A stretch of DNA of 64,000 nucleotides. It comes from Rusavskia elegans (Eukaryota > Ascomycota > Lecanoromycetes > Teloschistales > Teloschistaceae). Below are positions 5,020-42,815 of this stretch, one piece after another; the stretch's first letter is position 1; each line of letters starts with the position of its first letter. Where the stretch lies: assembly GCA_011316305.1 (NCBI GenBank), contig SAUG01000050.1, forward strand, positions 496,001-560,000, written 5' to 3'. A model generated the notes under the pieces. It saw nothing but the letters and a program-made list of their open reading frames with translations, had not been told where the DNA came from and searched no databases. Made by a program: the position numbers and the translations under genes.

Positions 5020-6953
5020 TCAGTTCGTTCCTATCCTGCATCCTGTGGTCACCGTCTTCACTGCCGTCATCGCAATTTTCCGCCCCATTCCATGGACACC
5101 ATCAACTGCAGTACCGCGCCCCTGTAAAGAGAAACCCTTTCTCGAATCAAGTCCCAACTTTGCCAAGCTGCTTCCTCGTCAGCAGTCAATAACATTAAGA
5201 GTCGAACAAACGGCTGTCACCTACCCCGAGGAAAGGCGAGACAATGGCCGTAAGCCCACCGGCAACAATCGTCATGGTGTAAAGGTAACTCATAGCCGAA
5301 ACGATGGCTTGTGCAACCTGAGCCTGGAGACCTTCAGAAAAGCTTCGAAATTCGGAGCTGCTTGAACCCGCGAGTATTGCAGTTGCACTGCCGCTGAAGT
5401 CTGGTGGTAGGTATGGTTCGATGTAGCTGGCACCTAGGTTCTGGAAGATGCAGCCACTGATTGCAGGGAAGAACGTGATGCCCAAGCACTGTACCAGACT
5501 AAGAACTCCGATAGCGTTGAAAACGTCGCTGGCGTCGACGACCGCCGAGACACATCCGAAGGCACTCATCAGGAAGCTGCCTCCTCCTACGCCCAGGATC
5601 GCAGTGTAGCCGTATATCGCTGAAGTGCTGGTGTCGGTGTCCACCGTGAACATGAGGGCACCCCCAACGACGGCTAGCATGGAACCGCCCAGGAACCATG
5701 GCATGTAGTAACCAAGCTTGGACATGAAGAAGCCGTTGAGGATGGAGACGGCGGCGATGATTAAAACAAATGGCAGCAGCCTCACGGCGGCCCCAACCGG
5801 GCTTTCTCCCTTGGCGAATTGAAAGAACAGTGGGATGTAGTAAATGGGAATGTAGACGGCGGCCGGAGCCGAGAAGATGGCGACTTGGAGGATCCCGAGC
5901 TTCCGGTTCCGAAGCATGTGCCCAGGATAAAGGCGATCCTCCACAGGGACAAATGGGTGCATCTTGTGAGCCAGTACGAAGGCGATGGTGAGGACACCGA
6001 CAAATACCCAAAGGATGATCTCACTGTAGGAATCCCATGCGTAGAACGTCCCACCGAATATGAGCGCCATGAAAAACGAAATGGACCAGCCGGTCCAGAT
6101 GAAAAGTCCAAGCCAGTCCAGCTTCAGCAACTTCTGCTTGGCGGATAGGTCCGGGGTGAAGTTGAGCGAAGGTAGAAGAAACAACATCACCGGCGCGGCC
6201 GCAATGAAGATGAAAAGGTTGATGTAGAAACCCCATCGCCACCCGACTCTGCTCTCGGCAAAGCCTCCACCAACCTGCCAAATTAGACGGGTCGCCAACT
6301 ATGAACATTCAAGAAGACTTACGATTGGACCTAGCACGGTGCCGATTCCCCAGACGGGAGTAATGAGGGAGATGTACATGGGTCTTTCTTTTGGAGTGGT
6401 GATGACGCTGAAGAAAGTTAAGCTGCCGACATACATTCCGCAACCACCAACACCAGCGATCATGCGGCCAACAATCAGGGCATCCATCCGAGGGGCGGCA
6501 CCCGAAATGGCGCTTCCGATCTCGAAAAGAAGGACAAAGATCAAGTAAAGCCATTTGATGTTGAAAAGGGCGTACAGCTTGGACTGGGTCAAGACTAGCA
6601 CGGTGCCTGGGATTGCGTACGCAGTGGCCAGCCAGGGGAATTTCTCAAACTCGCCGAGAGACTGGATGATGTTGGGCTGGATATCAGCGACCTGGAATGC
6701 GTCAATAGGTTGGATCGAGTGCCTTGATGGTGATTTCCGGCTTTGAGCATACGACTGTCGTGTCCAAGGCGAACAGGAAAACGCATGACAAGATAGCACC
6801 AACGGTCAGGACCCATTTGACACCGTGAATCTGGCGTTCAACTTCGTTGGTCTTCTCATCCGCCTCAGGCACAGGACTTTCGACGTCGGTGGAGGGGCTG
6901 TGGGCGCTGCCTTTGTGGGGAATGTCTGAGTTGTCTGTGGAATCTTGGTCCAT
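5020..6953 (-). CDS. MFS drug:H+ antiporter, DHA2 (14-TM) family
   Basis: Plasma-membrane exporter, probably for the product of the adjoining cluster or a toxic compound. Exons are 6753-6953, 6323-6691, 5225-6274 and 5020-5121, giving 573 aa. The N-terminus is an acidic cytosolic tail, then TM1 with FALDTTVV (motif D1 of DHA2 pumps), FPWLATAY, the A-like loop region and motif C (PVWGIGTVLGPIVGGGFAE), followed by TM helices in the second half. Joins at TTV|VAD and GPI|VGGG restore conserved motifs. The last intron (5122-5224) is inferred from a GTAGGT donor and a TTTACAG acceptor. If it is not spliced, the protein ends at the stop at 5195 (549 aa). Similar pumps accompany AflR-like regulators in many clusters. 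Confidence 0.87.
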
Positions 6954-21149: not shown

Positions 21150-21158
21150 AAGACTCAT
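21150..21158 (+). promoter_or_regulatory. AAGACTCAT element of array gene 1
   Basis: Same 9-mer as upstream of array genes 2 and 10; it matches the Gcn4/AP-1-type half TGASTCAT except at the first base. A weak TCTAAGAC lies 18 bp downstream in the TATA position. It precedes the ATG at 21287 by about 130 nt. Confidence 0.45.
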
Positions 21159-21286
21159 TACGTTCCCTAACCTTGATCTAAGACCCAAGTCATACTCTCT
21201 ATCCTCAAGTATCCCGCTCCATACATCAAGCTCCTACATTCTTGTACAAAAATCGCAAAGGGTACTGATTGCTGATACTGATCACA

Positions 21287-21736
21287 ATGCACTTTTCCGC
21301 CCCACATATTTACAGCCATCATCATCACGATATGCCCAACACCAACCAAGAACTGGAAGAACTCAACGAAAAAACACACAATCGTCTTCTGGAACTTTGC
21401 GTCACACGCTTCATGTACGATCTAAAGAAACAATATCCTCAATGTCTCATAGACAGCATAAACAACCGTTTCAGCGACAGAGAAGAGGCGGACAAACTCA
21501 TCATCGAGCAAATCGAACGTCTGGCTGCTCTCTCCATGATGCGAGAGAATGATAGCATTGCAATAGCGAGCAGGGACGTTAAGCTACTGATTGACAAAGG
21601 TGAGGCAGTGTGCAAAGAAGAGGGACATACAGATGCGTCATGTCAGTTCAAGATGTTGCATGATTTGATCAAGAAGAGGACTGGAGATCTGGCAAAGCTG
21701 AAGGCTGGTAGAACGGAAGCGGCCAGCGACGTTTAG
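21287..21736 (+). CDS. Array gene 1: small helical CHCH-signature protein
   Basis: Single exon, 149 aa from ATG 21287 (a second in-frame ATG at 21332 gives 134 aa). I do not recognise a named family. The protein is predicted helical and charged, with no signal peptide or membrane segment. The C-terminal half has the array signature as C-x4-H-x4-C-x5-H (AVCKEEGHTDASCQFKMLH), followed by DLIKKRTGDLAKLK. The N-terminal half begins EKTHNRLLELCVTRF, which matches genes 2 and 3 of the array. First member of a same-strand tandem array running to about 32 kb. Confidence 0.65.
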   Translation: MHFSAPHIYSHHHHDMPNTNQELEELNEKTHNRLLELCVTRFMYDLKKQYPQCLIDSINNRFSDREEADKLIIEQIERLAALSMMRENDSIAIASRDVKLLIDKGEAVCKEEGHTDASCQFKMLHDLIKKRTGDLAKLKAGRTEAASDV

Positions 21737-21741
21737 TGTGG

Positions 21742-22210
21742 TTACAATGAAAGAGCTTGCCGATGTCTCTCAATATACCCTACCACTTGCTCATCGTACA
21801 GTGTAAATAGCTTCCAGTCTACCACCAACCCGAACTTATAATAGAACCCACTACCTTTTCCTTTTTCCCCGCCAGCGCATTCGAATCTGCCGTATTCGCG
21901 ATGATGGGGTCCAGCATTCGACACCTCGATACAGGATATCGTTGTATTGATTACTTCGACCTTTCCAATGTAGCTGCCTATAAATTTATTAATGGTTGAT
22001 ATGTTGCCTATACTGCAGCTGTCTTTTACACAGAGAGATATATTGCATAGAATGACCCCTGAATCGAATGCCACGACCGGCGGGGGAGGTGATAGATCGG
22101 CTATTTGTTCGAGGTTGAGATCAACTCCACAGTACTTCTTCTTGGACCTCAAGGAGCCCAAGGCCGAAAATGAATAACCCAAGAATGTATGCGATGACTC
22201 GCACGAACAT
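21742..22210 (-). other. Minus-strand frame between array genes 1 and 2 (possible secreted protein)
   Basis: A minus-strand ATG at 22210 starts MFVRVIAYILGLFIFGLGLL, a convincing signal-peptide-like sequence, but this frame stops after 29 codons. An overlapping frame then stays open to 21742, is cysteine-bearing, and includes STINKFIGSYIGKVEV and FECAGGEKGKGSGFYYKFG. I found no intron of normal size that joins the two frames in phase, so it is either broken or spliced in a way I cannot see. The STINKFIGSYIGKV motif resembles SINTIINGAYISAV in the minus-strand frame at 26925-27140. Function unknown. Confidence 0.3.
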
Positions 22211-22247
22211 ATCAAGGGTACAACCCGTCATCCGGCGGACACTCTCG

Positions 22248-22284
22248 AAGACTCATCCACAAAGCTGCGCGCGAGGGTATAAAA
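22248..22284 (+). promoter_or_regulatory. Array gene 2 promoter: AAGACTCAT plus TATAAAA
   Basis: AAGACTCAT at 22248-22256, then 21 bp, then TATAAAA at 22278-22284. The ATG at 22385 is 107 nt downstream of the TATA box. Confidence 0.55.
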
Positions 22285-22384
22285 TGGGACTTCTCCTCCA
22301 TTATCCTTAGTCTACCACACATCACTCCACAATATTCGAATATAAACTTCTTCTACGATCCACGAGACAGCAAATACATATCTT

Positions 22385-22894
22385 ATGGCTACCACGACAA
22401 CGAACAACCTCCCCCAGTCGGACGAGCTTATCATACCTTCCTACAGAGAAGCCTACAAACAGATTTCACACAGGCTTTTGATGGACGCCATATGCTTCAG
22501 CAGCTACAGCCCACCTGAGAAAACGGAAACGGAGCATGACCTAAAATTCACAGAAGCCGTCCAGAACCAGGCCCCCAGCCGCGAGGAAGCATTGACTAGG
22601 GTTATCATGAGCCTTGCCAGTTTACAAGGACTTACCAACCTCCGCGAACATATGGGCTTTGTGGACGATATTGACACCGCAGACCGCGATCTGGGCCTTC
22701 TGGCTAGTTTACCCACAGTACTTGGGTGCGAGCACGAAGCGAGCACACATGAGGCCAGTCAATTCAAGGTGTTGCATGAATTGATCGATCGGCGGACGGC
22801 GGATGTTCAGCGCATGAAAGCGGAGGGAGCGGTGCCAAAATCCGAAGCGGAGAAGAAGGGGACGGAGAGCGGCGATGATGACGAAGCGGAGTAG
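22385..22894 (+). CDS. Array gene 2: small helical protein of the CHCH-signature family
   Basis: Single exon, 169 aa, ATG 22385 about 107 nt after a good TATA box. The N-terminal part YKQISHRLLMDAICF matches genes 1 and 3. The signature reads VLGCEHEASTHEASQFKVLH, so the third ligand position (C in most members) is serine here. It continues ELIDRRTADVQRMKA, the common R-x(6)-M/L-K helix end, and finishes with an acidic tail (SGDDDEAE). No signal peptide. Function unknown. Confidence 0.68.
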   Translation: MATTTTNNLPQSDELIIPSYREAYKQISHRLLMDAICFSSYSPPEKTETEHDLKFTEAVQNQAPSREEALTRVIMSLASLQGLTNLREHMGFVDDIDTADRDLGLLASLPTVLGCEHEASTHEASQFKVLHELIDRRTADVQRMKAEGAVPKSEAEKKGTESGDDDEAE

Positions 22895-23335
22895 GCTTGA
22901 GCCTTGCTTTGAATTTTTGAAATCATGCGTGCGATTTTATTTTGCTCACCATTGATGTTGCTTAACCATAGAGGATGGGGACCCCACAATATGCATGCGA
23001 ATTCTGTTTGCACAAGTCCATCTTTAATCGAGCATCATAGACTTGGCCACAACTACCTTGCTGATCAGAGACGAAAGTGAGAGCGACTAGATAGTCCACG
23101 CCAGTATTTGACTTTTAAGTAGTGCAGCAGTTACAAGATTAAACTCACTAGTCCAGCCTCGGAAGAAGCTATGTTTTCTACTCAAAGCCTTGTGTTCGGC
23201 AACAAACGATTGTCACCTTTGGCAGTACCCACATCGACATACAGTAGAACCCGAGCAACGACGCGCTTTATCCAGTGGACTATATGCTCATTCACATACA
23301 CTTCCAGTATGAATTATACACAACGCTGCCACGGG

Positions 23336-23673
23336 TATATAATGCCCATTCTCCCCCATAATCCACTATCTTCCATGATACAAGCTACGGCTCCACATCT
23401 ACAGTCGTCGACACCCCAAAAAAAAATTACTTTTCAGTCATGGCCGCTCCAGCCACGAACGAAGACGCCCGGCCCCATAAATCCATGCAACCTGTTATCG
23501 ATCCCTGGAGAAAAATGTACGATGATTTATTGGATCGTCTTCTCGTAAACATACTGCTTCCCCAAGCACAGAAATCATCCGTAGAAGAGGAAAATGAACA
23601 ACAGATTGAAAACCGGAGATACGTGCAACAGAAACCTTTCCAAAAGTTGAAGGTATTCTCGGTGCAGCAATAA
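23336..23673 (+). CDS. Array gene 3: truncated family member with TATA box
   Basis: A TATATAATG box at 23336 is followed 104 nt later by ATG 23440 and a 77-codon frame ending at 23673. The first half (WRKMYDDLLDRLLVNILLPQ) corresponds to the N-terminal helices of genes 1 and 2. The C-terminal half with the C-x-H...C-x5-H signature is absent, and I could not find it downstream in another frame. Either a short functional variant or a 3'-truncated copy. No GASTCAT element was seen at the usual place. Confidence 0.45.
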
Positions 23674-24117
23674 GACTGGTATTGTTCTCCCAGCCTTGGT
23701 AGAAGCTTTAATTCTTTTCTCTGAGAGTGGATTACTGAAATAATACTATGTAGAATCGTATTTTTTCAGGCCTTACCGTTATTTGTAGGAGTAAAACTCT
23801 AACGTATATTAGTAGACTCGCAGGTATAGACTTTGGAGTCCTTCTGAATTTGTCTAATTAGGCTGCTAGTTCCAATTTCCCGAATACTGTTGTATGTACC
23901 AGGTAATCAGTTTAGCACTCTGCGCGAAAGAAGTACGTGAAGCGTCTTGATGACTTCACCGAAGGATTGTCATCCCCAATACTGTTGATCCATCATCAGA
24001 CCTGCCAGAATGTATCTAAGCAGGGCGACTTTTGTTACTTTTGGTTCACGTCAAAACAGGGCCCTTTCGAAACTCTCCCCAGAAACCAACAAGAACTTCT
24101 CAGATCTCCCTTCCGAA

Positions 24118-24570
24118 ATGTCTAGAACTCTGTCCGAAGCGAGTAGCTACACTACCCATCTCCAGTCCCTCGAGAGCCTCGTCGAAGTCTGCACCAACTA
24201 CCAGAGAGACAATGTTGGCATCCCCGAAACACTTATCCAACGGATTCAGGAGAAACTCGAACAACTAGTTCTGCCCTCTATCGAAAGAAACACAACAGTC
24301 TACGAGACTGCCTCCGATGAACTGATGGATCTCGAAATCATCGCCGACGACCTTGGATGTCACCATAAAAACAAGGCTGAAGACAATGCATGTCAATTTG
24401 TGGTGCTACATGATTGCATTGAGCATAGAATAGAGGATATGAAACGACTAGATGGTCTGATGGGGATGTCTTATGATGAGGTTGAGCAGGAATGGACGAG
24501 GCATTGTGAGGAAGCGTGGGAGATGGCTGCTTGGGATGAGCAGCATGCGCAGATATATTTTGGCTTTTGA
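24118..24570 (+). CDS. Array gene 4: small helical CHCH-signature protein
   Basis: Single exon, 150 aa from ATG 24118. An upstream in-frame ATG at 24010 would add 36 residues unlike any paralogue, so the inner start is preferred. The N-terminal domain reads YTTHLQSLESLVEVCTNYQ, then IPETLIQRIQEKLEQL. The signature is complete: DDLGCHHKNKAEDNACQFVV, then LH, a C-x-H-x8-C-x5-H pattern, then DCIEHRIEDMKRL. A tail rich in E, W and aromatic residues follows. The best reference copy for aligning the others. No TATA box or GASTCAT element found upstream. Confidence 0.68.
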   Translation: MSRTLSEASSYTTHLQSLESLVEVCTNYQRDNVGIPETLIQRIQEKLEQLVLPSIERNTTVYETASDELMDLEIIADDLGCHHKNKAEDNACQFVVLHDCIEHRIEDMKRLDGLMGMSYDEVEQEWTRHCEEAWEMAAWDEQHAQIYFGF

Positions 24571-24679
24571 GGGATAATTGTTAATCGTGCAAAGAGACAC
24601 AGGTAGCTAGACTGGTACAAATTTTGATCCGTGCGGAGTTATATATGCATCCGTAACTGCGGTGGTGTCATGCTTTTTT

Positions 24680-24975
24680 TTAGACCTTCGAAGTAATATT
24701 TATCTCTGTACGAACACATTCATAGCCAAAGACAAACTCTATAGCTCTGGCACCTTTTTTTTTCTTATCGAAGTGGCTTTCTTCAGCCCAGGTCGGCATA
24801 GTGAGGCACTCGACGAATCGGCTACGTAGATCATGACAGTGTGGTGGTGATGCCCACCCTGTTGACCCACAGCAGAAGGTCTGAGCTGCTGTGTGTGACT
24901 GACACTTCGGGTTGATCATTTGGTACACACGATGAGCAAGATGAAAGCAAATAGTGTGACCCTCAGGGATTCCAT
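24680..24975 (-). CDS. Candidate small secreted protein, antisense between array genes 4 and 5
   Basis: A minus-strand ATG at 24975 begins MESLRVTLFAFILLI, a good signal-peptide core. A 50-nt intron (24881-24930, GTGTGT..CAG) would join it in phase to a frame ending at 24680. The result is about 81 aa, starting TFCCGSTGWASPPHCHDL after the signal core, with six cysteines in all and a basic KKKK stretch. The segment PPHCHDLRSRFVEC loosely resembles PHHREYGRFEC in the minus-strand frame at 21742-22210. Unrecognised family; model rests on one hand-placed intron. Confidence 0.35.
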
Positions 24976-25107
24976 TAGCCGAAAGTTAAGAAGAGAGAAG
25001 TTTTGAGTGGCTTAGGGCTGCAACAATGAACATTTTGTGTGACTCTATTGCCTAATTCGAGTCACGAGGATAATTTAATGCTTGAGCATCGAAAAATATT
25101 ACTCTAC

Positions 25108-25142
25108 AAGAGTCATTGCCCAGGAGAGCTGACTATATAAAG
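25108..25142 (+). promoter_or_regulatory. Array gene 5 promoter: AAGAGTCAT plus TATATAAAG
   Basis: AAGAGTCAT at 25108-25116, exactly 17 bp, then TATATAAAG from 25134. The ATG at 25250 is 116 nt downstream of the TATA box. The intervening CAGGAGAGCTGAC aligns with CGAGGGAGGTTAAC and CAAGGGTAGCTGGC in front of genes 6 and 7. Confidence 0.6.
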
Positions 25143-25249
25143 GTTTAGGTGGTCCCCTTCTTTCTATATTGCTTCTGCACCTTCCAAACAACTCCTCCTT
25201 ACTCAATAACATCGAGTAGCACACATCTAGACAACCAACGACTTTCAAA

Positions 25250-25669
25250 ATGGTTTCCCCAGAAATCCGCAACCAAACCTTCAAGGCTCATCTCCGCTGT
25301 CTCGGATTTTTGGTCGGTGCATATCTCGCATACACCGAGGCAGGATTCACAGTTCCGGAATCTATCCTTGCAACTATCCAAACCGAATGCCAAACGCTGT
25401 TGGACATATCTAAGAATTACGAAATTGTCGACCTCGAGGACGCGAGGGATGATCTAGATGATCTCAAGGATCTAGTCGACGGACTCGGGCGCTGTCAACA
25501 GGACACTACTAGCGAATCATCTGAGCTCCAGATACTCCAACAGCTGATAGCTCAGAAGGAATCTCGAGTCAAAGCTCACGAGGAGTTGTATGGAGCTGCC
25601 GAAAGAACGAGAGGACGGAGAAGAAGCTCCTCGAGTGATTCGTTAGCGGAGTCTCATGGGAGTGATTGA
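25250..25669 (+). CDS. Array gene 5: helical family member, subgroup without the CHCH ligands
   Basis: Single exon, 139 aa. Forms a subgroup with genes 6 and 7: LRCLGFLVGAYLAYTEAGF, then VPESILATIQTECQTLLDIS, then a D/E-L heptad region (ARDDLDDLKDLVDGLGRCQQ), then LQILQQLIAQKESRVKAHEE. The signature is degraded: one C kept (shifted), the second C replaced by S, and LQ instead of LH. A Ser/Arg tail follows (RRSSSSDSLAESHGSD). The 3' flank at 25697-25740 is nearly identical to that of gene 7, showing that duplication units included flanking DNA. Confidence 0.68.
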   Translation: MVSPEIRNQTFKAHLRCLGFLVGAYLAYTEAGFTVPESILATIQTECQTLLDISKNYEIVDLEDARDDLDDLKDLVDGLGRCQQDTTSESSELQILQQLIAQKESRVKAHEELYGAAERTRGRRRSSSSDSLAESHGSD

Positions 25670-26235
25670 GTTCTAGATAGTTTGGCTTTTCTTTAGTTGC
25701 TTGCGGGTTAGTTATGCGTTTGTGTTCATAGATGTTCCAGGCACCAAAACCTGAAATAGTCCAAATAACAGGAATATTACTACTTTTCGATTAAACCGAC
25801 TCTTGTCGCAGCTCTAGCGCTATGAGTAGTTACCTCTCCTGTGATTCGCTAGTGGAAGTGCTGACATATGCGTAACAGCGTTAGTAATTCTGGGACGTAC
25901 TAAAGTAGAGATATTAGCTCTCAAAAGATCACTATTTCTTCAAAAGTGTCTCTACCATCATAAAAGATAGCAAAAGTGCTCTAAGAGTATCTACTGGCTA
26001 TCTACTCCGTCCTAATAGGTTTAAACGATAGAAGAACTATACCGGCTATCAGCGAATATACCTACCGAGCCGTCTCCTGAGTCTCTATTTTGTTCGTCAA
26101 AACAAGACCCTAGTAGGACTGTGGAACGTTTTGGTACATCAAAGCTGAACAATGACTTAGCTATTTTTCATGTCTTTGCGGTCCTCTTCTAGTCACACGA
26201 ATGTCATGAGGGTCAATTCAAAAACATGGTCCCTT
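25670..26235. other. AT-rich spacer, possible decayed transposon fragment
   Basis: The first part (25697-25740) is the 3' flank shared with gene 7. From about 25890 to 26090 the sequence is rich in TA and CTA/TAG triplets with stops in all frames and translates patchily to text reminiscent of a Fot1/pogo helix-turn-helix region. That resemblance is weak. No intact gene. Confidence 0.3.
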
Positions 26236-26270
26236 ATGAGTCGTTTTCGAGGGAGGTTAACTACATAAAG
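26236..26270 (+). promoter_or_regulatory. Array gene 6 promoter: ATGAGTCGT plus TACATAAAG
   Basis: ATGAGTCGT at 26236-26244, 17 bp, then TACATAAAG from 26262. It is intact in layout although the gene behind it carries a nonsense codon. Confidence 0.5.
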
Positions 26271-26365
26271 ATCGAGGTACCGCCCTTCATCGACGCCCCT
26301 TTTCCAAAGTATTGCACAGCTGCCACACCACCAAGCAGTACACAGTCTCAATACTACTCACCTTC

Positions 26366-26812
26366 ATGATGCCATCATCAAATTCCACAGACATGAAATC
26401 CCGTCTCCGCTGCCTCAAATCATTAACCAGTGTTTATCTCAGCTATCTTGACGCGGGACTTAAAATATCAGATCCCATCCTCCAAACTTAACAACCCGAA
26501 TTCGAGATTCTGTTCGACTTATATACGGACCAAGAGCTTTATAGCATTGAGGAAGCCAAGGATGAGCTAGATAAGCTTAGGGACAGGGCTGATTTACTTG
26601 ATTGTCATTGTGACGAGAAAGCCAAGGAACATGCTCTGGAGTTACGGGTGTTGTGTGTTGTAATTTCTCAGAAGAAAACCCAGGTGGAAGATTATGTTCC
26701 CACTCATATTGCGTCTTATGGATCCAATGAGGAATTCGAAGCTTTGCAGGAATATGCTCAAAGGCTCGCGGATATGACAGAACTCGAAGCGATGGCGGCT
26801 CGAGATATGTGA
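26366..26812 (+). pseudogene. Array gene 6: family member with an in-frame stop
   Basis: From ATG 26366 the frame runs to a TGA at 26810-26812 (149 codons) but is broken by TAA at 26489-26491, codon 42. The codons on both sides match genes 5 and 7: LRCLKSLTSVYLSYLDAGL before the stop, then EAKDELDKLRDRADLLDCHC and LRVLCVVISQKKTQVEDY after it. No other frameshift is seen, so the lesion looks recent. It could also be an assembly error, or the gene may use a downstream start. TATA box, upstream element and 3' flank resemble those of genes 5 and 7. Confidence 0.7.
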
Positions 26813-26924
26813 TTCATATATGCTTGCGAATCAAGCTTGCGTTAATGTAATACCGAAACTTGCAGGACGATTCCGGGGCCCTAAGCTTGAGATAACTTTT
26901 AGCATATAGAAATTTCCTTACCTT

Positions 26925-27140
26925 TCATACCGTTGTTGAATTCCGCTTGGCATGAAAGATCCTGAAGTTGAAAGTCGATCCACATTCGTGAATCTCCTCT
27001 CTGGGTTGCAAGGTGACTGCGCTTATATAGGCCCCGTTGATTATCGTATTTATTGACGCAGCTTCCACCAATAGCACAAACATACCAGAAGAGTCATTAT
27101 ATTGTCCAGTAACTTGGATCAGGCTTTTATCACGAGTCAT
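26925..27140 (-). other. Minus-strand frame overlapping gene 7 promoter
   Basis: A 71-codon minus-strand frame from ATG 27140 contains SINTIINGAYISAV, similar to the motif in the frame at 21742-22210. It lacks a signal peptide and overlaps the promoter element and TATA box of array gene 7, so it is probably a remnant if it ever was a gene. Confidence 0.22.
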
Positions 27141-27166
27141 AATCAAGGGTAGCTGGCTACATAAGG
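27132..27166 (+). promoter_or_regulatory. Array gene 7 promoter: ACGAGTCAT plus TACATAAGG
   Basis: ACGAGTCAT at 27132-27140, 17 bp, then TACATAAGG from 27158. The ATG at 27281 is 123 nt downstream of the box. Confidence 0.58.
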
Positions 27167-27280
27167 GACAAGGACTTCCCAGATCCTCCGTTTCTTTCTT
27201 CCTAACTACCACAACTCAAGAATACCTACCTTCTTATTCTCACCAAATAGCACACAGTCAAGATTACAAACACTCCCAAG

Positions 27281-27688
27281 ATGTCCGTCTCAATCTCCAA
27301 AGACAAGGTCTACTACACCCACATCCGGGGCCTTCTGTGCCTTACTGGACTGCAATTTGACTATACCGAAGGAGGAGTTGACGTACCCGACAAGGTTCTT
27401 CAACTCATCCAGGAAGAAGGACGGATCTTACTAGACCTATCGAAAGATCAAGAAGTCGGCAGTGTCAGAGATTCCAAAAGCCATCTAGAACAGCTTCGGG
27501 ACATAGCTTCTACCATTAGATGGTATCACGAGGAGATTACTGAGACCATTTCGGAGCAGTGGAAGATAGTGCAGGAGTTGATCGCTCGGAAGGAAGCGCT
27601 GTTGAAAGCCCACAAGGCATTGCATGGGTCTGAAGGAAAGGAGGAGAAGTTGAAGAGTGGACTCCCGAGGGTACCGTCGACGGATTGA
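27281..27688 (+). CDS. Array gene 7: helical family member, subgroup without the CHCH ligands
   Basis: Single exon, 135 aa. Closest to gene 5 in sequence and layout: IRGLLCLTGLQFDYTEGGV, VPDKVLQLIQEEGRILLDLS, HLEQLRDIASTIRWYHEE, then WKIVQELIARKEALLKAHKA. Both signature cysteines are lost (W and S/E in their places). It ends with a short Lys/Pro tail. Its promoter, ATG spacing and 3' flank (27723-27766) match gene 5. Function unknown. Confidence 0.66.
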   Translation: MSVSISKDKVYYTHIRGLLCLTGLQFDYTEGGVDVPDKVLQLIQEEGRILLDLSKDQEVGSVRDSKSHLEQLRDIASTIRWYHEEITETISEQWKIVQELIARKEALLKAHKALHGSEGKEEKLKSGLPRVPSTD

Positions 27689-27859
27689 TGGAGGCCTGGG
27701 TGGCATGATTTATTTTAACTGATTGCTTGCGAGTTGAGTATGCGTTGGTGTTCATAGATGTTCCAAGCCACGATTTGAACAAGATACTATTGTAGTTTGC
27801 ATTAATGGAATACACACACCCGTCAAATCTCCATCGTGAACACTACGTGAGATTTTTAA

Positions 27860-28491
27860 GGGTCATGATCCGCGCACTCCACAGTATCACTAAAGCACTC
27901 CATAGAGATCACTAAAACACTCCATGGGGATCACTATAAAGCTCCACGCTTATTAAGCAGGATTTAACCAATCGGCGTGCTCAGTTGCCACTCCGCCACC
28001 CCAATAATTGGCTGTATCGGGTAGTCTAGCCTTATACAGCTAGACTGCCGAAACTATACCGACGGAGAATATCAAAGAAACAGAAGGAGAATAGGGCTAG
28101 CCCTACCTCAGGGCATCTCTAACAGCTTTAGGTAGTAAGATATTCTCTACAATCGAGGTAAACGAGGTTCAAGAGGTATTCCGTACCCAATTCTGGCCGC
28201 GTATACTGGATGTTCTTATATTTAACAGTATAGGTATATAGCTAAAAGATATAAGAGTTTTAGCTCTAAACCTTAAATATTAGGTATATAGTACAAGGTT
28301 ATACGAGGTGGTTAAAGAATTGGGATCTCGATAGGGTTATTTACGAAGTAGGGTAGACCCTGTAGAATTTAATTATCTGATTGGTCAACTCGGCTGCGCG
28401 ATACCTTATATAGTAAAGAATGACCATGGAGTGTTTTAGTGATCTCCATGGAGTGCTTTAGTGATACTATGGAGTGCGCGGATCATGACCC
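27860..28491. mobile_element. 632-bp hAT-like MITE with 8-bp target duplication
   Basis: The ends are inverted copies: left GGGTCATGATCCGCGCACTC, right its reverse complement with an A/T change a little further in. The same 8 bp, ATTTTTAA, flanks both ends (27852-27859 and 28492-28499), as expected for hAT transposition. Subterminal direct repeats of about 22 bp (ATCACTAAAGCACTCCATAG and variants) occur at 27886-27950 and, inverted, at 28428-28475. The interior is AT-rich with no open frame for a transposase, so it is a non-autonomous element. It lies between array genes 7 and 8. Confidence 0.85.
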
Positions 28492-28505
28492 ATTTTTAAG
28501 GCGGG

Positions 28506-28540
28506 AAGTCGTCATTCGAGGGTGATATGTGTGCAATGTA
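28506..28540 (+). promoter_or_regulatory. Degenerate array-type promoter block of gene 8
   Basis: AAGTCGTCATTCGAGGGTGA at 28506-28525 aligns with GAGTCGTTTTCGAGGGAGGT of gene 6, but no TATA box follows. The MITE's target duplication ends only 6 bp upstream, so the insertion now adjoins this block. Confidence 0.4.
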
Positions 28541-28696
28541 TGACATCCCTTCACTGACCACACCAAAATAGAGAATCTCGATCTCAAAAAAAAACCGCCG
28601 GTGCTTCAGTAGAGTCACCACAATCAACAAACACAAAATAAGAACCCTTCTTCTTCCTCCTTTTCTAAGCTCTCCATCGACTACTCTCTTGCTCCC

Positions 28697-29173
28697 ATGA
28701 CGTTTCCAAAAGGACGGACAGTAATAACAGCGGACCAACCTACAATGCCTCCCCTTGACGAAGATTTCGAGACATTCAGCCGCCACATAAGCCGCCTCAA
28801 GCACATCGTAGGGCTATCACAATCATACAACCATGTACGCCGCCCCGCCCACATCGATGCCCTGATAGCTCAACAACTCGAGCCACTACATAATACTTTC
28901 ACTCGACTCCGCAGGGCCCAAGCCTACGACCTGAAAATAAAAGGCAACCGCGAAGACTTCGTTGGAAATCTCAAACTGCTCAACGAGCTGCTACTGGGTC
29001 TGAAATGTTTTCGACATCCACAAGAGAAATATGCAAAGGAGGCTTGTCGGTATAAATTGTTGCATCAGATGGTGGGCCAGCATTTGGATGATCTGAGAGC
29101 TTCGAGGGAGTGGGAATGGATGAATTGGAAGGAGAGCCCGGGGTCTAGTTGGGAACTTGCGGAGAAGTCATAG
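28697..29173 (+). CDS. Array gene 8: small helical CHCH-signature protein
   Basis: Single exon, 158 aa from ATG 28697. A second ATG at 28745 (MPPLDEDFETF) matches the paralogues' N-termini better and would give 142 aa. Domain: FSRHISRLKHIVGLSQSYN, then HIDALIAQQLEPLHNTF. Signature: LKCFRHPQEKYAKEACRYKL then LH, i.e. C-x2-H-x9-C-x5-H, followed by QMVGQHLDDLRA. A Trp-rich tail resembles that of gene 4. Promoter lacks a TATA box and has a MITE next to it. Confidence 0.64.
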   Translation: MTFPKGRTVITADQPTMPPLDEDFETFSRHISRLKHIVGLSQSYNHVRRPAHIDALIAQQLEPLHNTFTRLRRAQAYDLKIKGNREDFVGNLKLLNELLLGLKCFRHPQEKYAKEACRYKLLHQMVGQHLDDLRASREWEWMNWKESPGSSWELAEKS

Positions 29174-29970
29174 GTCTTAAGAGTCTTGTGTGAAGACTTT
29201 GCAATAGCTTGCATCGAATAATAGCTCTTGCTGTGCGACCACAGTCGCGTTCATGATCATCCGTTTCTCATCCACCTTTATCACTTCAAAGATTAACCTA
29301 GCTAGGGTCCTACTGTAGAGCCGCTCTGATTATCCCTTCGCTGCTGGTGTCTTCGATTCGAATTCCAGGGGCTCGGCGAGCAGAAAGATCTGGACACAAA
29401 GCCTATCGACCTAAACGATTGGTTATTGTAGTATAGCTAGCATTCGAGGTATCGGATTCCTACTTCCGCCAAGTCGAAGGGATACTAAGAATATCCAAAC
29501 AATTCTGCTTACCGCAAGAGAGGGTTTCAGACGGAGTGAAGTTCTGCGAAGACCCAATTCAGCAACGGAAGGAAAATCACGCTTAAACTGCAAAATAGGC
29601 AGCAGACCTTCCATGTCCGGGTATCGACTTATCTACGCCCCCTTCCATTGATTTATGCTATGGCCAAGACGCTGGATCGGAAGCCAAATTCGGGAAGGTG
29701 GAAGTCCCACATGTTCAGCCATTGGAGTCACGATGAGTTTGTTACCATTGTAGGCGTCAGTCACGAGTATACGCTCGCTACTGTCTGGAATTCCGAGTCG
29801 TCCAAGTAGGTCGGAACCATGACTGGTATTTGGAAAAGGCCTCCGCCGGCTGGGGATTTGAGTGACAGTAAGAAGTGTATCTCGCAATGGCTTTTCTACA
29901 CAGAGCTGGACGGGATACAGCTGACTGTATCAGTGCGAATCAATCTGACATTCACGTTGATCGTGGATCT
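29174..29970. other. Spacer between array genes 8 and 9
   Basis: No supported gene. A minus-strand frame at 29633-29887 starts from a non-ATG codon and shows no motif. Nothing else stands out apart from the gene 9 promoter that follows. Confidence 0.5.
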
Positions 29971-30004
29971 ACGAGTCATCCGTACGGTTTAAAGTGTATA
30001 TAAG
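29971..30004 (+). promoter_or_regulatory. Array gene 9 promoter: ACGAGTCAT plus TATATAAG
   Basis: ACGAGTCAT at 29971-29979, exactly 17 bp, then TATATAAG at 29997-30004. This decides the start codon of gene 9: the ATG at 30010 is too close to the box to be used, so the ATG at 30139 (142 nt from it) is preferred. Confidence 0.6.
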
Positions 30005-30138
30005 CAGCGATGCGAAGGAGATTCCCAGAATCAGAAGACGCAACCCCACTACTGCCTCCACAGTCTACGGAACGAATCGCGTATACTCGAAGACAATATA
30101 TACAGTCTACCATCTACATCATCGCTACCCAAGGCACT

Positions 30139-30618
30139 ATGTCGCCATCTTCTTTCTCCACCCACATGACCTACCTCGAGAACCTAGCCAAGCTCCACCA
30201 ACACTATGCCTCCCAACGGGACGACGGAAAGGCCCCCGAAGAGCTCATCAGTCTGATCCGGACAGAGATCCTCAAATTAGGAGCCCATCGTGATTCCTCG
30301 ACTCTAGACCCTACACTTGCGAAGACTCACCGGCTAACAAGTTTGACCACGGCGCTTGGCTGTAATCATGGCTCCACAGCAGCGGAGAACGCTTGCGTCT
30401 TCACTGATCTTCATGCGCTGATATTACGAAGGATCAATCATCTCAGAGACCAAAAATTGAAAAGCGGAGGTGGGAAAGTGAAGGCGGCTGTCAGAAGAAG
30501 GAGGTTTGGGAGGGCTCGTCGGTCTGACAGTTCTGATGAGGAAACCAGTTACAGCGGGTCGGATGGCGAGGAGAGCGACGGTGACGGTGGGACCATTTAC
30601 CCCGGCAGAAGGGCTTGA
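30139..30618 (+). CDS. Array gene 9: small helical CHCH-signature protein with acidic/basic tail
   Basis: Single exon, 159 aa from ATG 30139. Domain: FSTHMTYLENLAKLHQHYAS, then APEELISLIRTEILKLGAH. Signature: ALGCNHGSTAAENACVFTDL then H (C-x-H-x8-C-x5-H), then ALILRRINHLRDQK. The C-terminus has a basic patch (VRRRRFGRARR) followed by an SD/ED-rich acidic tail, the longest in the array, which suggests nuclear or nucleic-acid/histone-like contacts (inference). No signal peptide. Confidence 0.68.
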   Translation: MSPSSFSTHMTYLENLAKLHQHYASQRDDGKAPEELISLIRTEILKLGAHRDSSTLDPTLAKTHRLTSLTTALGCNHGSTAAENACVFTDLHALILRRINHLRDQKLKSGGGKVKAAVRRRRFGRARRSDSSDEETSYSGSDGEESDGDGGTIYPGRRA

Positions 30619-31450
30619 TACCGGCGGAAATCTTGAATATAGCGGTTAGGTTGTTGATGTCTCGGGTCTCCACATTGTATACCTGTATGCGATTGAATCA
30701 GTATATCGTTTGTCTGGTATTACATCGAGGGTCTACCTATCATCAGCAATCTAGGTTGATTCCTTCTTGCTTCGCACATATAGATCAAAGAAGAAGCTAT
30801 CGGTCCATTGTGGAGTTTTTTTCAGATCTTGCCCAAAGAAGAGGTGAGTTCCACGAAGTGAGATTTGTTCAGATCCAGCTGAACATCAATCACCCCAATG
30901 ACGGCATCTGACAATACGAACACGACTCTCCGTTTGTAGGGCGCGGCTCTCTTTGATTTAACGTTTGACTTACCATTCCTCCCAGACCCGCCTGTTTACT
31001 TCTTTCCTCCACACACTCTTCCATCAATCCACGCACCCCCTACAGGAAATCATCATTCCTCACGTCAACCAGCCTCGCGGTGAGCAGAATTGTTCGGACA
31101 CTTTGACCTAACGGGTTAGGTAGTCGATACCTCGATTGGGAGCCAAATCAGCGCCCCGGCCAAGGCTTGCTGTCCGGATCTTTTTGCTCACGACGAGCCA
31201 GCATACCACTCGTCACTAAACTCCTACGAACCTATCTCCTTCGATGAACATCTCGACCGACTCAACAACGCCGCGAACTTTTAAAACTCTTACCTTGTCG
31301 AGCAAGTTGCCGAGCCTCCGATAGATCTCTTCGAATTCACAATCCTGAGATACCGATACGTACCGCACATGTCGGAAACCTTGTGTGATGATACTCGAAG
31401 CGACTTCACTTTTCGCGTGAAGTAAGATTCGGTTCCGATTTTGTGGAAAG
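30619..31450. other. Spacer with minus-strand frame 31216-31557 and palindromic motif
   Basis: TCGATACCTCGA at 31124-31135 differs by one base from the TCGGTACCTCGA motif of the left cluster. A minus-strand ATG frame of 113 codons (31557 down to 31216) overlaps the promoter of gene 10. It has no signal peptide or recognised domain and is not counted as a gene. The rest shows nothing. Confidence 0.35.
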
Positions 31451-31486
31451 TAAGACTCATCAGGCAGATTAAACTGGGGTATATAA
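31451..31486 (+). promoter_or_regulatory. Array gene 10 promoter: AAGACTCAT plus TATATAAG
   Basis: AAGACTCAT at 31451-31459, 19 bp, then TATATAAG at 31479-31486. The ATG at 31608 is 129 nt downstream of the box. Confidence 0.57.
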
Positions 31487-31607
31487 GTCGGTCCTCCCCC
31501 GATTCTTTCTGCGTCCTCTACACTCTTGATATCTCCAACGCCTACCACCACTATCATTAATCACAATCTCCTATCAGTGTCCCAGACTTCTTCCAGGATC
31601 CTAAACC

Positions 31608-31967
31608 ATGCCCCAGGAACTCGTATTAAGCGAGGACACACAGTGCATACACGATAAGTTTGACCGCCACATCACTCACCTCACCAATCTCAGCAAGATC
31701 GGCAACTTCTTAACCAGCAACCTCCACGACCGTGGCGGCGCAGGACTCAGGAACATAATCGTTCAAGAGCTCCAGGCTCTCAAGACTTTGCCAGAATGTT
31801 GTGGAGACGCTGAATGTGACGCCGAAGATCTTCTCAAACTCACAGCACTGGCAAAATCTTTAGGCTGCAAACATGACAAACAAAGTGAGGAATCGTGTAG
31901 GTTTCGGGATTTACATACGATCATTAGCAAAAGGATCAGGACAATGTCTTTGCTGGACGACCCATAG
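31608..31967 (+). CDS. Array gene 10: small helical CHCH-signature protein
   Basis: Single exon, 119 aa, the most compact complete member. Domain: FDRHITHLTNLSKIGNFLTS, then LRNIIVQELQALKTL; DLLKLTALAKSLGCKHDKQS continues into EESCRFRDLH, giving C-x-H-x7-C-x5-H, then TIISKRIRTMSLL. The extra motif CCGDAEC precedes the signature. No tail after the last helix, so this probably approximates the minimal domain. Function unknown. Confidence 0.68.
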   Translation: MPQELVLSEDTQCIHDKFDRHITHLTNLSKIGNFLTSNLHDRGGAGLRNIIVQELQALKTLPECCGDAECDAEDLLKLTALAKSLGCKHDKQSEESCRFRDLHTIISKRIRTMSLLDDP

Positions 31968-32548
31968 CCGTCAGTCAGGGAAGCGGGGTTTGTTGGACAG
32001 GGTGAGGAGCATGATAGTCCTAAGCGATTGTTTGATCAAGCGTTTTGTGGGGCTGGCTGGAGAATCTTGTCCTTGTTAGTCTCAGTTGAAACGTTGGGCC
32101 ATGTTCGATAGGAGAAACGTGCATGCCCGTAGACGCGGTTGCGGATGGCTGTCATAAAGTGCTCTCTTAGAATTATGAACACCTTTGTCCTTTGTAAATA
32201 CAAGCATTGCGAGCCTCGTGGCTTTTTAACCAATCGGACGTAATTTACCTGATCAAGGAAAATTAGCGATATCCTCTTCGGTTGACGCGGACGTCCGGCT
32301 TTGGTCTTACCGGCAGCCCTCGCCCGCCTGCAGCTACCCTTGATGACGGCTACACGAAACCAGTCAACCTCCAAGATCGCAGCATCCGGCTGCAGAACGA
32401 TCAAAGCGTCTTTGAGGTTGTTTCCGGTACTCAAAGCTTTGGTTTTCCGTCAAGGAGGGGTTTCTCGGAATTCCTTGTTACCCCTTGCATCCCTTGCTGC
32501 CCACAACATGGCGACAAATAAACCATCGCAACCCTCCACAATGATGTT

Positions 32549-33373
32549 ATGTCGACGATCATGAAGCCAGATTTCCTTGTGTCCACCTATGCGGCGTCCC
32601 AATTCTACCAACCACTGCCACCGAAATGGCTCAAGAGGAAGACGCACCTACCCAGAAACTTCGAGAAGCCCGCTCGCGAATCGCTAAAGGCTCTCGAGAC
32701 TCTAGCTGAGATTCGCTCAAAGCTGGATGACTTCGACACGACCCAAATTGATCTTTTGATCGACCACAAGATCAATCTGAACGCGCAGTTCACGCCTCGC
32801 AACGCCTTCGACGACTCGGAAGAATGCCAGCTTGAGCGGCTGTCACGGCTGACGGAGGTTCGCAAGAGGTTGGAAGGAACGAATTATGCGCTGGCGAATC
32901 TGGATGCTATGCTCAAGCTCAGTCTTGATAACCTCTCCATGGCGACTGGGATCTCTCGCGCTCATTCTGTACGCCCCTTCTTGTGTCCAGGCCTTCAAAA
33001 TGCTAACAAGATCAAGTTCCTCACGGCCCATATTCCCATTCTATCTTTTCGAACAGAGGCGTTCACTATCCACACCACAAGCCATGACACATCGGTCTCG
33101 CTGTTCTTCGATGATCGTACCCGTCAACTCCACGTTTACCAGGACGGGAAAAAGTCCTATTGGGAGGGACACGAGATCAAGCTAGCGCTTCTCGACATCT
33201 GGAAAGCGACCTGGGCTGAGAAGAGCGCTAAACTTTGCCTCCATCTCTTCAACCCCCACGACCTCTTGTACGAATCCTGTATGCTGGAGATGAAGGTGCC
33301 TAGGGATGCACGTGGTTTTTTGCAAAAGATGAGTGGGATCGCAAATTTCAAGACTTGCCGTGTGGAGAGGTGA
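32549..33373 (+). CDS. Unidentified 274-aa protein at the array end; N-terminus array-like
   Basis: Single exon from ATG 32549. Residues of about 45-130 recall the array domain: LKALETLAEIRSKLDDFD (gene 4 has LQSLESLVEVCTNYQRDN), then IDLLIDHKINLNAQF and LERLSRLTEVRKRLEG. The C-H-C-H ligands are missing. The second half (about 140-274) is different and beta-rich: PFLCPGLQNANKIKFLTAHI, then FFDDRTRQLHVYQDGKKSYW, KLCLHLFNPHDLLYESCMLE. I recognise no named domain in it. It has the same strand as the array, 0.6 kb beyond gene 10, and its promoter shows neither TATA box nor GASTCAT element. It may be a distant relative carrying an extra domain, or unrelated. Confidence 0.6.
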   Translation: MSTIMKPDFLVSTYAASQFYQPLPPKWLKRKTHLPRNFEKPARESLKALETLAEIRSKLDDFDTTQIDLLIDHKINLNAQFTPRNAFDDSEECQLERLSRLTEVRKRLEGTNYALANLDAMLKLSLDNLSMATGISRAHSVRPFLCPGLQNANKIKFLTAHIPILSFRTEAFTIHTTSHDTSVSLFFDDRTRQLHVYQDGKKSYWEGHEIKLALLDIWKATWAEKSAKLCLHLFNPHDLLYESCMLEMKVPRDARGFLQKMSGIANFKTCRVER

Positions 33374-34658: not shown

Positions 34659-35417
34659 ATTAATATAGTTGGATTAGAGCGTGCAATCAAGGATCTTAGC
34701 TGTATCGAGTGTAATTGTAGGAAGCACGCAGATCTTAAAGAGTCAGGTAATCAACAAGACTGTACCGTAATTGCTGCGTCCTCATGCCAAGATATGCCCG
34801 GGTTTCATGACGTCTCTAGTGGCTTGGCAAGGCTTGTAGTAGCTGCCCGTATCTGCAGGGGTGCGGCGTCAATCTCATTGCCGCCTGGGTCGGAGTATGA
34901 ACCAACCAATCAATCAATATCCTTGTATTGAACAACAGGAGGTCCAGCTTTTCATTGAGGCACGAGCTACCTCCAAACCTCTGCACCTAGGAACCGAACC
35001 TGAACTGCCCATAATGCCGCCAGTACCAAAAGCTAACGCGTCAAAGACTGGTTAGTGGGTCTCTTTTGATCAACTCTACCCGGTGCTTCTGCCGCACTAA
35101 GCTCTAAATGGGAATGTCCAAACCGCGCAGTAATGCCAAGATACCAGACCAATCGCTGGATTGAGTAACTAGCTCACCAAGCCTCACCGAACTATTGGTT
35201 CACTGGCACTATAACCAACCAAAGACAAATGACTCATAGCAATCTGCTTCAATTTCTCGTCGATACTCTTGCATCCACCAATCCTCCACTGTCCGCTATT
35301 GTGCCAATTATCATCACACCGGCATCTCCAAAGGCGAATTCTGAACCTAAGTCGCCGAACTCTTTTACCTAGAAAAGCAACGACACGAGCATCGAATCCC
35401 TCCAAGAAGTTCGCAGC
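34659..35417. other. Divergent intergenic region
   Basis: Promoter region between the ML-domain gene (minus) and the gene at 35418 (plus). A TATAT-like stretch lies just upstream of the ML start. No other gene seen. Confidence 0.5.
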
Positions 35418-36224
35418 ATGACAAAGCGCTCGAGAATGATATCCCCCCGCATAAAGCCATTCATCAACAAGCTCTTCACGTCCAGGAAGCGTGACGAACT
35501 CGCAGCGGTCAACAGAGACAACAAGATGCTGTCAGGCGTCGAAAGAAATTCCGATGGACCGCCAGAAGGGTTGGGCGGAATGGTGGCGGAGTACATCAGA
35601 TCGATGACCGAAGTCCGCGTAGCCGCAGAATTTCGCGACTACGTAGCGTGGGCACACCAGGAGTTACAGACAGATGATATACAGTCGGTGCTATGGACAC
35701 ATCCGCCACCGCCGACCCCGAATGTTGACTGGCAGGTGTTTGAGTCACAGCTGGCTCAGGATGAAGAGAAACTTCGTATTCATCGCCTCATTACTCGAGG
35801 TTCCCAACTCCCAGATAATTACGAAAAACCACATGTCCCATGGTTTTCCGAGTTCGCGACGGCTGTGGAGATCCTCGGAACGGACGACGAGGACATACGG
35901 AACCAAATCAAAGCGTATGCCCAGGGGAAATCAATGTGTCACGAAGGTATCTATCAATTAGTCTATGAAGGCGATTTAGACGGCCTAGCACAGCGGCTCG
36001 CACGGGAGACAGCCAATCTGGAATGGTTTTTCAGAGATAGGGATGATCCACAGGAGGAGATAAGTATGCGTTACATCCTGGAGCGTATTCAGAGCCAGTT
36101 CTTTACTCGTTGCTTTCTCCAAGAGAACAAGGTAGTATACTCATTGACGGAGGAGTCCGAACGTCAACAGATGGCACATTTCGGAGGGCAGTCAGCTGGT
36201 TATGAAGACTATTCAAACTACTGA
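35418..36224 (+). CDS. Hypothetical protein, 268 aa
   Basis: Single exon from ATG 35418 to TGA. No domain recognised, no signal peptide or membrane segment. The N-terminus is basic (MTKRSRMISPRIKPF), the rest acidic and mainly helical, with VAAEFRDYVAWAHQELQTDD, a proline stretch THPPPPTPNVDW and IHRLITRGSQLPDNYEKP. Codon use and length support a real gene. It may be lineage-restricted. Confidence 0.6.
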   Translation: MTKRSRMISPRIKPFINKLFTSRKRDELAAVNRDNKMLSGVERNSDGPPEGLGGMVAEYIRSMTEVRVAAEFRDYVAWAHQELQTDDIQSVLWTHPPPPTPNVDWQVFESQLAQDEEKLRIHRLITRGSQLPDNYEKPHVPWFSEFATAVEILGTDDEDIRNQIKAYAQGKSMCHEGIYQLVYEGDLDGLAQRLARETANLEWFFRDRDDPQEEISMRYILERIQSQFFTRCFLQENKVVYSLTEESERQQMAHFGGQSAGYEDYSNY

Positions 36225-41984: not shown

Positions 41985-42815
41985 TCAATTGTCCAGACTA
42001 CTCCTTGGCATATATCTAATCCCTCGGAACCAGAGATCGAATCCTGACTGGCAATCGATACAGCCAGGCGGGAGTTGTGGTGGCATTGCGTTAGTGATAA
42101 TAAGGCCTATATCGCTCGCAATGTCCCTCGCATATTGACGGCATTCTTCGAATGCCTGGTTCTCGGCCCCTTGGAAGGCTCTAAGCATCGTTACCGTGCT
42201 GGCATTCAGGTTTACCGGGCGCGGACCAACAAGAACAGCCCCTCCGTCACGGGCAGGATGTGGGATATCGACGATCATAGATCCTCCAGGCGTTAGCATC
42301 TGTGCCCACTGTTGTAGCAGGGCTACGCGTTTGTCAATTCGGCAATTGAGGAGGACGCGTTGGGCGGTGAGCAGATGGATTTGGCCCCGTGGGGCAAGCT
42401 TATCCCGTAATGCGTCCTGGTGATCAATAACATCGTAGGTGAAGGCATCTAGCTCAGGGGGTCCCGGAAGAGCCCTAGTGGCTGGCCAGCGTTTTCGTAT
42501 GGCTTGGTCGAGCATTCCATCGAGACCGTCTACGAGGACGACCCTGGGAAAGAGGCCTCGTGTCGCGAGCTTATCGACGCACGCGAGCGCTGTTTTGCCG
42601 GTGCCCGTCCCTAAGTCGACGTATTAGTGGAGAGTTGTTATCATGGGAACTTGTGAGGCTATCAGGGCAGCGGTTTCGTTGAACCCGGTGATTACGGCGT
42701 CGTAGGCCGAAATCTGCTGAGGAGAATAGATTGTGGACAGAGCATGATAAGAATGATGGAATCCATCACTGGTATAGTCAGCCGTCCGTAAGGCGATTCT
42801 AGCAGCAATGTAGGT
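41985..42815 (-). pseudogene. Class I SAM-dependent methyltransferase, disrupted
   Basis: Reading on the minus strand from about 42815: DYTSDGFHHSYHALSTIYSP, then ISAYDAVITGFNETAALIAS, then a TAA stop at 42624-42626, immediately followed in the same frame by YVDLGTGTGKTALACVDKL (SAM-binding motif I) and VVLVDGLDGMLDQAIRKRWP. A clean 176-codon frame ends at 41985 with MLTPGGSMIVDIPHPARDGG (post-motif region) and LWFRGIRYMP. No in-frame ATG precedes motif I. The open frame alone would lack the SAM site, so this is a broken gene rather than a short enzyme. The parent resembles small-molecule methyltransferases of fungal clusters. Confidence 0.7.

What the first reader, a model, noticed from the sequence alone, without database searches (positions are those of the whole stretch)
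21150..33373. Tandem array of an undescribed small-protein family
Ten same-strand, mostly intronless genes (21.3-32.0 kb), 119-169 aa when complete, share one helical layout: an N-terminal YxxHLxxLxxL helix, a second helix with LIxxIQxxLxxL, a DELxxLxxIADxLGC helix, then CQFxxLHxLIxxRxxxMKxL. They differ strongly elsewhere, as in fast-evolving birth-and-death families. I recognise no known domain. One copy is truncated, one has a nonsense codon, and one possible relative at the end carries an extra domain. Direct observation: the shared motifs and layout. Inference: common ancestry and rapid divergence.
Basis: partly seen in the sequence, partly recalled or inferred. Interest (0 to 1): 0.9.

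Follow-up and report, generated by a model that had tools for sequence, protein, structure and literature searches.

The report
Lichen-fungus array of small helical proteins
A lichen-forming fungus carries a row of eight small related genes of no recognised family, probably folding into the same four-helix bundle; the named relatives found are all in closely related lichen fungi, and what they do is not known.

Summary
Eight intact genes (21.3-32.0 kb, one strand) form one protein family: each left-out member is found again by a profile built without it or its orthologues, E 2.7e-8 to 3.2e-21. A ninth copy is a pseudogene with one in-frame TAA; a tenth is a probable N-terminal stub of gene 2 (weak). 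The 'relative with an extra domain' (32549-33373) is not supported. No Pfam match is better than E 0.012 in 29 members. Eight single-member searches of the 44-Mb genome found no convincing copy elsewhere. Of 21 database relatives, the 11 with a species name are Xanthoria, Rusavskia and Flavoplaca, one subfamily of lichen fungi. Each paralogue has near relatives 80-96% identical, while paralogues are 21-37% identical; three paralogue lineages predate the split from Flavoplaca. So the array is old and kept, not freshly expanding. AlphaFold models of two members give the same four-helix bundle, with only generic PDB matches. Most likely these are intracellular protein-binding modules, each with its own partner; that step is inference. 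An undescribed, lineage-restricted family of an ordinary kind: moderate interest.

The parts
21287..21736 (+). g1, 149 aa (relative P0006 begins near an inner Met); family member
   Evidence: leave-one-out HMM 1.3e-9; relatives P0006, P0008, P0009, P0010
22385..22894 (+). g2, 169 aa; family member
   Evidence: leave-one-out HMM 4.1e-17; relatives P0012-P0016, P0018; TATAAAA at -107
23440..23673 (+). probable N-terminal stub of a g2-like copy, 77 aa
   Evidence: colinear with g2 from residue 1; 2 of 500 shuffles reach the score; profile does not find it; TATATAA at -104
24118..24570 (+). g3, 150 aa from the start used by relative P0005 (186 aa from 24010)
   Evidence: leave-one-out HMM 3.2e-21; four-helix model, helices 35-66, 73-92, 98-114, 131-150 of the 186-aa form
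25250..25669 (+). g4, 139 aa; lacks the paired Cys; Ser/Arg tail 32 of 33 identical in each of two relatives
   Evidence: leave-one-out HMM 1.9e-18; four-helix model, mean pLDDT 81.4; tail count
26366..26812 (+). pseudogene, g4/g5-like, broken by one in-frame TAA at 26489-26491
   Evidence: two pieces found separately (second piece); position of stop
27281..27688 (+). g5, 135 aa; sister of the g4 group in the tree (36% identity to g4)
   Evidence: leave-one-out HMM 3.4e-15; P0001 96%; tree
28745..29173 (+). g6, 142 aa from the start used by relative P0004; weakest match to the profile
   Evidence: leave-one-out HMM 2.7e-8; P0004 92%
30139..30618 (+). g7, 159 aa from the start used by relative P0011; basic then acidic/Ser tail
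   Evidence: leave-one-out HMM 6.1e-14; P0011, P0017, P0019-P0021; TATATAA at -142
31608..31967 (+). g8, 119 aa; shortest, nearly core only
   Evidence: leave-one-out HMM 5.9e-13; P0007 90%; TATATAA at -128
25697..25742 (+). 46-bp element 3' of g4, 87% identical to 27723-27768 3' of g5
   Evidence: these two places only in the genome search

Best explanation
The array is a lineage-restricted family of small, probably intracellular proteins that share an antiparallel four-helix bundle and differ in surface and in a disordered charged C-terminal tail. Shown: the family, its one place in the genome at this sensitivity, and its orthologues. Predicted: the fold. Inferred: constraint on the protein (similarity survives where DNA similarity is nearly gone), and that each bundle is a protein-binding module (adaptor, chaperone or inhibitor) with its own partner, duplicated in tandem before the genera Xanthoria and Flavoplaca split and then kept by subfunctionalisation. 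In five of eight members a Cys at the end of helix 3 and a Cys at the start of helix 4, with a following LH, could clamp the loop between them by metal or redox chemistry; this last part is a guess.
Against: No partner, expression or localisation data. No PDB Foldseek match below E 0.26, so the look-alikes carry little functional weight; the top row is a designed repeat protein. The Cys/His set is absent or incomplete in g2, g4 and g5 (g4 has a Cys one place further on), so it cannot be needed by the whole family. g4 has a hydrophobic stretch near the N-terminus (mean 2.04 over 11 residues). 5 of 10 copies, g1 and g3 among them, show no TATA match at the place scanned.
Confidence: 0.45

Rival explanations
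1. Self/non-self or conflict genes: the bundles are quickly diverging recognition or antagonist proteins used between fungal individuals or against mobile elements.
For: Tandem array with one pseudogene and a probable stub; cores only 49-61% identical to Flavoplaca orthologues; lineage-specific genes cluster with HET-domain genes in Neurospora (start of the abstract of PMC10684091, seen in the listing).
Against: No HET, STAND or HeLo-type domain among the 20 other ORFs of the window that were scanned (not all ORFs were); orthologue groups kept across genera; no recent duplicates.
Confidence: 0.15
2. Symbiosis proteins acting on or for the algal partner, inside the fungus or exported by an unconventional route.
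For: All 11 named relatives are Teloschistaceae (taxonomy), a family of lichen formers (recalled).
Against: No clear signal sequence by hydropathy (no dedicated predictor was at hand). The search tool needs shared 5-residue words, so distant relatives in other fungi could be missed, and the restriction itself is not shown.
Confidence: 0.2
3. Small ligand or lipid carriers of the Aspergillus Afmp4p type (helical bundle with a fatty-acid pocket).
Confidence: 0.08
4. Chance resemblance of unrelated amphipathic helical ORFs.
For: Leu-rich helices resemble one another; composition shuffles do not keep helical periodicity.
Against: Leave-one-out hits at 2.7e-8 or better; with E up to 10 the family profiles returned only 8 of 3590 and 13 of 4786 candidates, the named ones all Teloschistaceae, and no PDB chain below E 0.25, so helical proteins in general do not match.
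Confidence: 0.01

Closest known systems
Lineage-specific ('orphan') tandem gene families of fungi
   Same: Short, intronless, no known domain, tandem, known from one lineage, with decaying copies
   Different: Paralogues here are old and kept in other genera; no HET-type neighbours among the ORFs scanned; about 90 kb from the contig end, telomere not examined
STAT coiled-coil domain and syntaxin/Sso2 bundles
   Same: Four-helix bundle of similar length used for protein binding
   Different: 5-13% identity in the alignments, generic Z level; stand-alone protein without SNARE, SH2 or DNA-binding part
Flagellar protein FlgN (bacterial)
   Different: Bacterial, 16% identity, no sequence support; a shape analogue only
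Afmp4p lipid-binding domain (Aspergillus fumigatus)
   Different: Secreted lipid binder (recalled); no sequence match and no shown pocket here

Membership tests
Any Pfam-A family | Whole-protein score above the curated gathering cut-off | tested here: not met
   9 window proteins, all matches below the printed cut-offs; 29 members, best E 0.012, cut-offs not printed in that table
This new family | Found by a profile built without it and its orthologues | tested here: met
   8 of 8 intact members
This new family | The stub 23440-23673 as a member | tested here: inconclusive
   missed by the profile; pairwise with g2 2 of 500 shuffles
This new family | Gene 9 (32549-33373) as a member | tested here: not met
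   missed by the profile; hhalign probability 0.04%
Secreted effector proteins | N-terminal signal sequence | tested here: inconclusive
   hydropathy only: seven members have an N-terminal 11-residue mean of at most 1.18; g4 reaches 2.04
Membrane proteins | Transmembrane segment | tested here: not met
   highest 19-residue mean hydropathy 1.29
STAT coiled-coil / syntaxin bundles | Shared fold above the generic level for helical bundles | tested here: inconclusive
Afmp4p-like lipid binders | Lipid pocket and secretion | not testable with these tools
Zinc-binding or disulfide-clamped bundle | Conserved Cys/His ligands in all members | tested here: not met
   both Cys in 17, none in 9, one in 3 of 29 rows; may hold for a subgroup
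Recent birth-and-death family | Recent lineage-specific duplicates | tested here: not met
   highest identity between intact paralogues 37% in 26 usable of 28 pairs; orthologue groups across genera for g1, g2, g7

The most novel reading that the evidence does not exclude
A protein family that arose within the Teloschistaceae lichen fungi and supplies a set of partner-specific intracellular switches (bundle plus charged, Ser-rich tail, some with a redox or metal clamp) used in building or regulating the lichen association; a lichen-lineage invention with no counterpart in other fungi.
Probability: 0.12. Interest if true: 0.7.

Novelty: new member of a known kind. Interest (0 to 1): 0.4.

Why it matters
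Lichen fungi, like other fungi, hold genes with no known relatives, and few of these have been ordered into families (my judgement). Here one such set gets a border, a predicted fold, relatives in three genera and a gene history, which makes it a ready target for expression and binding tests. As a kind of thing, an orphan tandem family with a common fold, it is not surprising.

Tried and rejected
Rfam, Pfam and PDB-sequence searches led nowhere. Foldseek and VIA-align gave only generic helical-bundle matches in PDB; the best viral-library match is an unnamed 456-residue protein at E 0.05, probability 0.97, rmsd 12.2, not taken as a relative. A family missing from those lists is not excluded. 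Gene 9 was tested as a member and dropped.

A Gcn4-like GAGTCA motif (name recalled) occurs within 400 bp upstream in 6 of 10 copies against 17% of background stretches (p 0.003), but it was picked after a k-mer scan and is not claimed. In one search the starts of the stub and the pseudogene were entered 18 bases short and 1 base late; one search used the right ones.

Two weak genome hits outside the array (C142, E 0.67; C215, E 0.38) hold stops and were treated as chance. The genome search is not fully sensitive: with g6 it found no other member and with g2 it missed the stub, so far-diverged copies elsewhere are not excluded.

In one search two of 28 paralogue pairs (g5-g6, g5-g8) gave alignments of only 5 and 9 residues and were left out of the identity range. 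The tree warns that long branches meet, its deep forks are unsupported, and g4 with P0002 and P0003 is an open fork together with the g5 clade, so the g4 group is not resolved as a clade.

Papers: five searches; no listed title or abstract start names this family. I saw passages of PMC9907504 and only listings with abstract starts of the others. dN/dS was not possible: no DNA of relatives was at hand.

Full report
Where it lies. The window is bases 496001-560000 of contig C167 (618,509 bases) in a 44.16-Mb genome of 217 contigs. The nearest named proteins belong to Xanthoria sp. 1 (P0004 92%, P0005 89% over 95 residues) and Rusavskia elegans (P0003 90%), so the organism is most likely a fungus of the Teloschistaceae, subfamily Xanthorioideae; the species was not settled.

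The observation. Eight intact, same-strand ORFs that need no intron lie between 21,287 and 31,967, with start-to-start spacing of 678-1469 bp when the stub and the pseudogene are counted. phmmer within the window links them, and a leave-one-out profile search over 1424 six-frame ORFs recovers each left-out member at 2.7e-8 or better, with nothing better than E 0.057 in shuffled ORFs. A ninth copy (26366-26812) is broken by one in-frame TAA; its two pieces hit g4 separately. A tenth (23440-23673) aligns with g2 from its first residue over 62-65 residues; 2 of 500 shuffles reach its score, the best of 18 comparisons, and the profile misses it, so I call it a probable stub. Gene 9 is not supported as a member.

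Start codons. For g3, g6 and g7 the relatives P0005, P0004 and P0011 begin at an inner Met. For g7 a TATATAA stands just before the outer ATG and 142 bp before the inner one, which again favours the inner start.

Is it known? None of the 9 window proteins reaches a Pfam cut-off; among 29 sequences (8 from the window, 21 from the database) the best Pfam E-value is 0.012, from scattered unrelated families; no PDB sequence is below E 0.25. In five literature searches no listed title or abstract start names it. The names given by sources are 'hypothetical protein'.

Who has it? Three searches of 5.8 billion proteins returned 21 different relatives. The 11 with a species name come from Xanthoria sp. 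1, Rusavskia elegans and Flavoplaca species; the other 10 have no name. The search needs shared 5-residue words, so more distant relatives may be missed. In the own genome, eight single-member searches found no convincing further copy; two weak hits elsewhere (E 0.67 and 0.38) hold stops. That search is not fully sensitive: g6 found only itself.

History. Identity between paralogues is 21-37% in 26 of 28 pairs (two pairs gave unusable alignments); against near relatives it is 82-96% for g1, g3, g4, g5, g6 and g8, 92-93% for g7, and for the g2 core 82 of 103 and 90 of 97. In a tree of the 29 sequences seven of eight paralogues form a clade with their relatives; g4, P0002 and P0003 stand in an open fork with the g5 clade. 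The g1, g2 and g7 clades hold Flavoplaca members beside the window's gene (support 100/99, 91/87, 99/99), so these three lineages split before the genera did. Deep branching is not resolved and the program warns of long branches. Four relatives (g1, g4, g7, g8 types: P0008, P0002, P0011, P0007) are each listed with a contig of 18,746 bases, and the g2 and g4 types of Rusavskia have consecutive tags Q9199_002925 and Q9199_002924 on contigs of 49,662 bases; this suggests, but does not prove, that the array is kept together. The cores of g7, g1 and g2 are 49-61% identical to Flavoplaca, tails mostly less. No calibration against ordinary genes was made, so 'fast' is not measured.

Anatomy. AlphaFold2 gives four helices in g3 (35-66, 73-92, 98-114, 131-150, with a short helix 122-125 and a further helix 155-184 of lower confidence) and in g4 (4-30, 37-54, 62-83, 91-121). 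The last 20 residues of g4 are low-confidence. In g4 the Ser/Arg tail is 32 of 33 identical in each of two relatives, while the core is 75 and 85 of 96, so the tail seems constrained. A Cys pair brackets the loop between helices 3 and 4 in 17 of 29 rows (g1, g3, g6, g7, g8 groups), is absent in 9 (the g4 group has a Cys one place on), and single in 3. No member has a transmembrane segment by hydropathy.

Promoters. TATAWAW stands at -104 to -142 in 5 of 10 copies (g2, stub, g4, g7, g8), against 2.4% of random stretches outside the array, so these copies probably have their own promoter; the other five show none at that place. A 46-bp element after g4 and g5 is 87% identical, while their proteins are 36% identical, and the genome search shows it only at these two places.

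How it most likely works. Shown: a tandem family with orthologues kept across genera. Predicted: a common four-helix bundle with charged tails. Inferred: constraint on the protein, and a role as protein-binding modules with different partners. I give 0.45 to this, 0.2 to a symbiosis role (which is compatible with it), 0.15 to a recognition or conflict role, 0.08 to ligand carriage.

Verdict. It is a new family of an ordinary kind.

Noticed in passing
window 27860-28491: A 632-bp transposon-like element (MITE) between g5 and g6: terminal inverted repeats of 68 bp (97%), flanked by the 8-bp duplication ATTTTTAA. The genome search lists 83 match rows (inverted arms matching each other included; 40 of 87 candidates scored), and 5 of 8 fetched copies show a perfect 8-bp duplication. 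An 8-bp duplication is typical of hAT elements (recalled).
   Followed up: partly
window 25697-25742 and 27723-27768: A 46-bp stretch downstream of g4 and g5 is 87% identical although the proteins are 36% identical; the genome search shows no other place. Unexplained: recent gene conversion or a kept 3' signal.
   Followed up: partly
window 2707-6298: AflR-type Zn2Cys6 regulator beside an MFS transporter, as might stand at the edge of a secondary-metabolite cluster.
   Followed up: no
window 32549-33373: Orphan 274-aa ORF, no Pfam match, single place in the genome; by eye its N-terminal part looks helical and its C-terminal part strand-rich.
   Followed up: partly
window 34000-58200: Ten larger ORFs of this stretch give no Pfam match, nor do 35373-36224 and 55463-56806, while 41985-42623 is weakly methyltransferase-like; no repeats of 40 bp or more in 33000-58000. 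It may hold intron-rich genes or further orphans.
   Followed up: no
L021: A diverged copy of the MITE whose ends have changed towards A and T, as repeat-induced point mutation would leave.
   Followed up: no
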